This document shows positions 8,208-57,655 of a DNA stretch of 64,000 nucleotides, piece by piece (positions within the stretch are counted from its first letter, which is position 1; every line of letters starts with the position of its first letter). The notes below the pieces were generated by a model. The model was not told the DNA's origin. It searched no databases and saw only the letters and a program-made list of their open reading frames with translations. Made by a program: the position numbers and the translations under genes. Source of the stretch: Bacteroidia bacterium (lineage in GTDB: Bacteria > Bacteroidota > Bacteroidia > Chitinophagales > JAUHXS01); contig JAUHXS010000001.1 in NCBI GenBank assembly GCA_030426955.1, forward strand, positions 561,339 to 625,338, in the 5' to 3' direction.

Positions 8208-8314
8208 AAAATCATAGTCGCCCTACGAGACAGCAACGCTTTTAACTGGAACATTGAAACACATTCGGCAAAGCCTATTTTTCTTAATCTGTGTTATCTT
8301 TTCATAATAAAGCA

Positions 8315-8344
8315 TATCTTTGATAGTATCAAATGATACTATCA
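8315..8344 (+). promoter_or_regulatory. Promoter and palindromic operator of the fic gene
   Basis: A TATCTTTG box (8315-8322) matches the Bacteroidota -7 consensus TAnnTTTG. It overlaps a perfect inverted repeat: TGATAGTATCA at 8321-8331, two bases AA, then its exact reverse complement at 8334-8344. The last base of the palindrome is the A of the fic ATG. A dimeric regulator bound here would cover the -7 box, the expected transcription start and the start codon. That the Fic protein itself binds it, through its C-terminal winged helix, is an inference. Confidence 0.7.
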
Positions 8345-9306
8345 TGAAGCCGCCATACGAAATCACGCCTATCATTTTAAACCTAATCAGCTCTATTTCC
8401 GAAAAAGTTGGAGAAATCAATGCGACACATCTTATTAAACCTCAAACAGAATTAAGAAAGAAGAATAAAATTAGAACCATTCAATCTTCTCTTGAGATAG
8501 AAGGCAACACCCTAACAGTTGAGCAAATTACAGCATTACTGAACAACAAAAGAGTGATTGCTCCAGCAAAAGACATTTTAGAAGTTGAAAATGCAATCAT
8601 AGTATATGATAACATTAGAATCCTAAAAACTAACTCGGTAAAAGACTTTAAGCAGGCGCATAAGACTTTAATGAAAGGGTTAATTGAAAATCCTGGCAAT
8701 TTTAGATCAACTGAAGTAGGTGTTGTAAAAGGATCGAAAGTTCAACACTTAGCACCTTCTGGCAGCATGGTTAATGGGTTAATGAATGATCTATTTAGCT
8801 ATCTAAAAAATACTAAAGAACTACATTTAATAAAGAGTTGTGTATTTCATTATGAACTTGAGTTCATCCATCCGTTCATTGACGGAAACGGAAGAATGGG
8901 ACGTTTATGGCAAACAGCCATCCTAATGCAATACAACCCAATCTTTGAATTTATTCCGATAGAATCTATCATAAAAGAAAGACAAGATCAATATTACCAA
9001 TCATTAGGTCATTCAGATAAAACAGGACAAGCAACACCTTTCATCGAATTCATGCTAGATGTAATCTCTGATGCATTGTCAGAAGTTCTTTTAAAACAAC
9101 GACCCAATTTAACAGCTAAAGATAGACTCGCTATCTTCAAAGACGAAATAGGCACAAATGAATTCTCTCGAAAGGAATACATGAACCATTACAAAGAAAT
9201 TTCTTCAGCTACTGCAAGTAGAGATTTATCCTTAGGGGTAAACGAAAAAACACTTTCAAAAATCGGAGATAAACGATTGACTAGATACAAATATAATGAC
9301 GCCTAA
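8344..9306 (+). CDS. Fic family protein (AMP-transferase type) with C-terminal winged helix
   Basis: Fic proteins usually transfer AMP to hydroxyl side chains of target proteins. The catalytic FIC motif HPFIDGNGRMGR starts at residue 176, with all conserved residues intact (H176, D/G/N/R). An N-terminal inhibitory helix motif of the (S/T)xxxE(G/N) type is visible in 'SSLEIEGNTL', which marks a class II, self-inhibited Fic. The last 60 residues look like a winged helix-turn-helix (FSRKEYMNHYKEISSATASRDLS), as in Fic proteins of the SoFic type. The ATG at 8344 is chosen over a TTG at 8320 because the latter would put the whole palindromic operator in the coding region. No antitoxin partner gene is adjacent. 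Confidence 0.9.
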   Translation: MKPPYEITPIILNLISSISEKVGEINATHLIKPQTELRKKNKIRTIQSSLEIEGNTLTVEQITALLNNKRVIAPAKDILEVENAIIVYDNIRILKTNSVKDFKQAHKTLMKGLIENPGNFRSTEVGVVKGSKVQHLAPSGSMVNGLMNDLFSYLKNTKELHLIKSCVFHYELEFIHPFIDGNGRMGRLWQTAILMQYNPIFEFIPIESIIKERQDQYYQSLGHSDKTGQATPFIEFMLDVISDALSEVLLKQRPNLTAKDRLAIFKDEIGTNEFSRKEYMNHYKEISSATASRDLSLGVNEKTLSKIGDKRLTRYKYNDA

Positions 9307-44088: not shown

Positions 44089-44155
44089 TAAAACGAGAAA
44101 GGGGCTCAATGAAATTCATTGAGCCCCTTTCTCGTAGATAAAGTACTTTATCTAC
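44089..44155 (-). terminator. Tandem long hairpins at the end of the YD-repeat gene
   Basis: Read on the minus strand, a perfect 22-base palindrome (44134-44155) contains the stop codon. It is followed by a near-perfect hairpin with an arm of about 20 bases (44093-44113 against 44115-44135) and then TTTTAT. The second is a strong intrinsic terminator. The first is extra. See findings. Confidence 0.75.
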
Positions 44156-57623: not shown

Positions 57624-57655
57624 AAAAGGTTTGAGCATAAGCTCAAACCTTTTTT
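57624..57655 (+). terminator. Rho-independent terminator after the DUF1761 gene
   Basis: AAAAGGTTTGAGC (57624-57636), loop ATAA, and GCTCAAACCTTTT (57641-57653) form a perfect 13-base-pair stem followed by more T. Confidence 0.95.

What the first reader, a model, noticed from the sequence alone, without database searches (positions are those of the whole stretch)
8315..8344. Perfect operator palindrome fused with the promoter and start codon of fic
An 11-base inverted repeat with a 2-base spacer covers the TTTG of a full -7 box, the probable transcription start and the A of the ATG. The encoded Fic protein ends in a winged helix-turn-helix, is class II self-inhibited and has no antitoxin gene. 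This fits an autoregulatory loop in which Fic senses its own state and represses its gene. The sequence facts are direct; the loop is inferred.
Basis: partly seen in the sequence, partly recalled or inferred. Interest (0 to 1): 0.6.

Follow-up and report, generated by a model that had tools for sequence, protein, structure and literature searches.

The report
Fic enzyme gene with self-binding operator
The palindrome at the start of this gene for a protein-modifying (Fic) enzyme is a DNA binding site kept almost unchanged across several bacterial phyla, only next to Fic enzymes with the same DNA-binding tail, so the enzyme very probably switches down its own gene, as one Yersinia relative is known to do.

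Summary
The palindrome is real: TGATAGTATCA-AA-TGATACTATCA, 8321-8344. Its second arm ends on the A of the fic ATG, and its first T and G complete a TAnnTTTG -7 box (8315-8322). Each arm is itself a palindrome (TGATA-N-TATCA), so it is two 11-bp sites in tandem.

Of related Fic genes found by protein search, all 33 with this C-terminal winged helix carry the operator (at least 16/20 fixed bases; the best of 2000 random regions reached 15). None of 21 relatives with a different C-terminus do. The operator also precedes fic in Bdellovibrionota, Pseudomonadota, Calditrichota and others, and no other gene travels with it.

A second, distant Fic family strengthens the case. It has different repeated operators in the same promoter position, and their central bases change with the recognition-helix residues. 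That is expected only if Fic itself reads the site.

Best explanation: Fic binds and represses its own promoter. CccR of Yersinia pseudotuberculosis is an experimental precedent (PMC9755527). The claim that Fic 'senses its own state' was not tested. This is a new variant of a known kind; what is new is the breadth and the operator-helix covariation.

The parts
8315..8322 (+). Bacteroidota-type -7 promoter element TATCTTTG (TAnnTTTG) whose last two bases belong to the operator
   Evidence: Sequence; TAnnTTTG overlaps the operator in 60 of 80 homologous promoters. Consensus recalled from general knowledge of Bacteroidota promoters; not tested experimentally.
8321..8331 (.). Operator box 1, palindrome TGATA-G-TATCA (extends to TTTGATAGTATCAAA)
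   Evidence: near-invariant in 80 homologous promoters
8334..8344 (.). Operator box 2, palindrome TGATA-C-TATCA, last base = A of the fic ATG
   Evidence: near-invariant in 80 homologous promoters
8344..9306 (+). fic: class II Fic protein of 320 aa, ATG start (the 328-aa TTG-start ORF would begin inside the operator)
   Evidence: Pfam Fic 3e-18; motif HPFIDGNGRMGR and inhibitory SLEIEG; homologues start at the equivalent MKPPY
9115..9303 (+). C-terminal winged helix-turn-helix, residues about 258-320; recognition helix 288-300 with SSATASRDL
   Evidence: AlphaFold2 model, mean pLDDT 92; separate model of the domain matches wHTH DNA-binding proteins by Foldseek, E about 0.003-0.05; A291 R293 D294 invariant in 58 homologues, T290 at least 90%

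Best explanation
The 24-bp element is the operator of the fic gene. The Fic protein binds it through its C-terminal winged helix, probably as a dimer with one winged helix per 11-bp box, and so covers the -7 box, the transcription start and the start codon, shutting off its own transcription when enough Fic is present. Shown: site, position, conservation, exclusive linkage to this winged helix, and covariation of operator and recognition helix in a second Fic family. Inferred: binding by this protein, dimer stoichiometry, and repression rather than activation.
For: (1) Protein-based samples: 33/33 intact Fic genes with this winged helix carry the operator, 0/21 relatives with another C-terminus do. 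(2) Unbiased DNA scan: 32 exact double sites in 395 class genomes against 0 for the reversed pattern, which is equally palindromic; 22 precede an intact Fic and 4 a Fic remnant. A scan of 85,000-species genomes found most of 80 listed sites 0-15 nt before fic, in several phyla. (3) The operator is the only conserved feature: no neighbouring gene recurs in more than 3 of 75 loci. (4) TAnnTTTG overlaps it in 60/80. (5) A second Fic family (about 370 aa) has other repeated operators that change with the recognition helix: KATATRD with TGAGCCGATTA, K/R-DTA-I/V with TGCAACGAATA, Q/P/A-DTALRD with TGCGGAGAATA, S/T-DTALRD with TGCGGTGAATA, MTATRD with TGTTACGATTA. (6) CccR, a class II Fic with C-terminal HTH, represses itself through palindromes at -35/-10 (PMC9755527).
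Against: The contrast between Fic proteins with and without this winged helix is one split in the tree, so it counts as one event. Within the window's own subfamily the operator hardly varies, so helix-operator covariation there is not testable. Six of 32 class sites are not next to fic or a visible remnant. Covariation has exceptions (L292, L324, L285) and ties between CGGA and CGGT. No binding or expression data.
Confidence: 0.83

Rival explanations
1. The operator belongs to a separate, unlinked regulator that controls fic in all these bacteria.
For: Orphan sites exist in genomes without this Fic; two lie on start codons of other genes (L089 sigma factor, L139 DsbD-like).
Against: The site tracks one domain of Fic itself, crosses phyla with fic alone, and in another Fic family operator bases change with Fic's own recognition helix. 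An unlinked regulator would not do this.
Confidence: 0.07
2. The inverted repeat works as an RNA hairpin in the fic mRNA that hides the start codon.
For: The RNA 8322-8400 folds into a 9-pair stem, z -3.15.
Against: Centre bases of the arms are complementary in only 29 of 72 G/C pairs. The predicted transcription start lies inside arm 1, so most of it would not be transcribed. Distance from site to ATG ranges from -1 to 196 nt. Each arm is kept palindromic, which a hairpin does not need.
Confidence: 0.04
3. Fic binds the site but activates, or uses the DNA mainly as an allosteric switch of its enzyme activity, rather than to repress.
For: CbFic2 changes from AMPylation to deAMPylation when DNA binds its C-terminal HTH (PMC10628234).
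Against: The site covers the -7 box, start site and start codon, the classical position for repression; CccR is a repressor. A fixed site at each promoter is not needed for a general DNA switch.
Confidence: 0.06

Closest known systems
CccR of Yersinia pseudotuberculosis (PMC9755527)
   Same: Class II Fic, C-terminal HTH, represses its own gene by binding palindromic boxes over the promoter; dimer required; the DNA-binding half alone (201-380) binds.
   Different: CccR boxes are AGATAATCAT-N26-ATGATAATCT near -35 and -10; here two contiguous TGATANTATCA boxes over -7 and the start codon. CccR is a T6SS effector; no such link was looked for or seen here. Any sequence similarity is distant: no close relative of that kind appears among the phmmer hits.
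CbFic2 of Coxiella burnetii (PMC10628234)
   Same: Class II Fic with C-terminal wHTH that binds DNA with nanomolar affinity.
   Different: Only random DNA was tested there; no operator known; 378 aa with DUF4172.
Dde_2494 Fic of Desulfovibrio (PDB 4rgl)
   Same: Closest solved structure over the Fic part (phmmer 1.6e-75 over residues 2-281; Foldseek 6e-26).
   Different: Sequence similarity stops at residue 281, in the C-terminal domain; relatives with such other C-termini lack the operator.
SoFic of Shewanella (PDB 3eqx/3zcn)
   Same: Fic plus C-terminal wHTH; the second, covarying family studied here is of similar size.
   Different: NCBIfam SoFic score 53 against a cut-off of 550; DNA binding by SoFic is not demonstrated (stated in PMC10628234).

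Membership tests
Class II Fic protein | HxFx(D/E)GNGRxxR catalytic motif | tested here: met
   H176-PFIDGNGRMG-R187; G181 N182 G183 R184 R187 invariant and H176 at least 90% conserved in 58 homologues
Class II Fic protein | N-terminal inhibitory helix (S/T)xxxE(G/N) | tested here: met
   S49-LEI-E53-G54; E53 invariant
CccR-type autorepressing Fic | C-terminal winged HTH | tested here: met
   AF2 models and Foldseek
CccR-type autorepressing Fic | Palindromic boxes over its own promoter | tested here: met
CccR-type autorepressing Fic | Same operator sequence and 26-bp spacing as CccR | tested here: not met
   TGATANTATCA boxes with a 2-bp spacer against AGATAATCAT-N26
CccR-type autorepressing Fic | Protein binds the operator and represses | not testable with these tools
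   Needs gel shift and promoter fusion
SoFic equivalog NF046030 | Score above curated cut-off | tested here: not met
   53.2 bits against a cut-off of 550
Class I Fic toxin-antitoxin module | Adjacent antitoxin gene carrying the inhibitory helix | tested here: not met
   Helix is in Fic itself; no conserved neighbour in 75 loci

The most novel reading that the evidence does not exclude
Winged-helix Fic enzymes form a broad class of antitoxin-free toxins or regulators in which the gene's own operator takes the antitoxin's place. Operator-bound Fic would be the dimeric, safe or deAMPylating form and free Fic the active one, so operator occupancy reports and sets enzyme state, with a readable helix-to-operator code across families.
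Probability: 0.17. Interest if true: 0.8.

Novelty: new variant of a known kind. Interest (0 to 1): 0.58.

Why it matters
Many bacterial Fic enzymes have unknown function. If those with a winged helix are autorepressors with a predictable operator, their promoters can be read from sequence, their expression followed, and orphan sites used to look for regulons. The covarying families give a set of paired helices and operators for testing protein-DNA recognition, and make the link between AMPylation state and DNA binding testable in harmless environmental bacteria.

Tried and rejected
RNA hairpin: rejected on centre-base counts and variable spacing. Regulon in the own genome: the 13 other TGATANTATCA sites examined lie inside ORFs and the double site is unique. 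Virus-borne copies: none in viral contigs; the one phage-record relative (L218) has another C-terminus and no such operator. Solved-structure relatives of the winged helix by sequence: none convincing. Type-A specific covariation (S292T in L044, L049 and L152 with A-to-G changes in the boxes) is one clade only, too few to count. Conserved operon partner: none.

Full report
WHAT IS THERE. The sequence at 8310-8349 reads aagcaTATCTTTGATAGTATCAAATGATACTATCATGAAG. A TAnnTTTG -7 element (8315-8322) runs into TGATAGTATCA (8321-8331), a 2-base spacer, and TGATACTATCA (8334-8344), whose last base is the A of the ATG. It can be sharpened: each arm is itself a palindrome around one base. By itself a perfect 11-base inverted repeat with a short spacer is expected 0.17 times per 64-kb window, so the repeat alone is only moderately unusual.

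THE PROTEIN. The gene encodes a 320-aa Fic protein (Pfam Fic 3e-18) with HPFIDGNGRMGR and the class II inhibitory motif SLEIEG. E53 of that motif is invariant in 58 homologues, as are A291, R293 and D294 in the C-terminal domain, with T290 at 90% or more. AlphaFold2 gives mean pLDDT 92 and a winged helix-turn-helix at about 258-317 with recognition helix 288-300. The domain alone resembles wHTH DNA-binding proteins in the PDB, including AdcR, AspA, BlaI and ArsR-type repressors, with modest Foldseek E-values of about 0.003-0.05.

THE REFUTATION TEST. Genomes were searched by protein, blind to the promoter, and plasmid and phage records were added. All 33 intact genes whose C-terminus matches this winged helix have the double site upstream, with at least 16 of 20 fixed bases; the best of 2000 random regions reached 15. 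None of 21 relatives that share the Fic domain but not this C-terminus scores above 13. Two further broken fic genes (L215, L241) keep the operator. The two groups are one split in the Fic-domain tree, so this contrast is one evolutionary event. The independent evidence is that the site has been kept through the whole of its side of the tree, over Bacteroidota, Bdellovibrionota, Pseudomonadota, Calditrichota and Chlorobiota. The DNA-scan part of that tree was chosen by the site itself; the protein-sampled part is within Bacteroidota.

SEARCHING FROM THE SITE. The exact double pattern occurs in 32 of 395 class genomes and the reversed pattern, also palindromic, in none. Of the 32, 22 precede an intact Fic, 4 precede remnants of fic (L081, L082, L084, L086) and 6 have no fic beside them. 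Orphan sites lie mostly between convergent genes; this is unexplained.

HOW THE SITE EVOLVES. In 80 promoters nearly every base of both boxes is fixed except the centres, which are G or C. The two centres are complementary in 29 and not in 43 cases, so the 11-bp palindrome is the conserved unit, not the long hairpin. The spacer is AA, TA or TT. TAnnTTTG overlaps in 60 of 80. The distance to ATG runs from -1 to 196 (in L024 the operator lies some 200 bp upstream), so the operator is tied to the promoter and not to the start codon. No neighbouring gene recurs in more than 3 of 75 loci, so Fic is the only protein that travels with the site.

A SECOND FAMILY SHOWS WHO READS THE SITE. A search for the winged helix in genomes with orphan sites led to another Fic family of about 370 aa. 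Its promoters carry different 11-bp boxes, usually 3-6 copies against mostly 2 in shuffles, again over a TATATTTG-like -7 box. The boxes share the frame TG-NNNN-GA(A/T)TA, and the NNNN follows the recognition helix: KATATRD with AGCC (9 of 9), K/R-DTA-I/V with CAAC (7 of 7), Q/P/A/G/E-DTA with CGGA (34, plus 9 ties, 2 CGGT, 2 none), S/T-DTA with CGGT (16; 1 CGGA, 1 CAAC, 1 none), MTATRD with TTAC (2 of 2). Mutual information between the variable helix residue and the fourth N is 1.06 bits against at most 0.33 in 300 shuffles. On the tree the S/T-CGGT state appears in separate places inside Q/P/A-CGGA groups (L260, L308, L336+L337), with exceptions in the other direction (L292, L324). Relatedness inflates simple p-values, but the pattern is what direct recognition predicts and what an unlinked regulator would not give.

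MECHANISM. Fic binds its own operator with the winged helix, covers the -7 box, start site and start codon, and lowers its own synthesis. By analogy with CccR, where each 10-bp box is one half of a dimer site, each 11-bp box here probably takes one winged helix, so one dimer covers both; two dimers are not excluded. CccR shows binding, footprint, loss of repression on mutation of the palindromes, dimer requirement, and repression independent of catalysis (PMC9755527).

NOVELTY. Autorepression by a Fic-HTH protein is known from one case that I found. In the open library searched I found no report of this operator, of its spread across phyla, or of operator-helix covariation among Fic families; subscription papers are not covered. 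I file it as a new variant of a known kind.

Noticed in passing
L217, L220, L221, L222, L224, L226: Relatives with the other C-terminus, mostly on proteobacterial plasmids, lie directly after a restriction specificity subunit (hsdS) gene, in several cases with a type I restriction endonuclease R subunit just downstream, suggesting a defence-linked role.
   Followed up: partly
L085, L087, L095, L112, L137, L142, L158: Orphan copies of the double operator between convergent genes with no fic of this type nearby; more than the palindromic control predicts and not explained.
   Followed up: partly
L089:3348-3371; L139:6991-7014: The double operator overlaps the start codon of other genes: a sigma-factor-like protein and a DsbD-like protein (names by eye from the sequence).
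   Followed up: no
L081, L125, L169: Decayed fic genes in which essentially only the winged helix remains readable beside an intact operator.
   Followed up: partly
L004:1027-2094: Another Fic gene of the same genome has its own repeats upstream (TCTATACATAT-N8-AAATGTATAGA plus a third copy), possibly a further operator class.
   Followed up: no
L142:5277-6332: A Fic protein whose winged helix, weakly related to this one, sits at the N-terminus instead of the C-terminus.
   Followed up: no
window 44101-44155 and 57625-57655: Other perfect inverted repeats of 11 or more bases in the window, not related to this operator.
   Followed up: no
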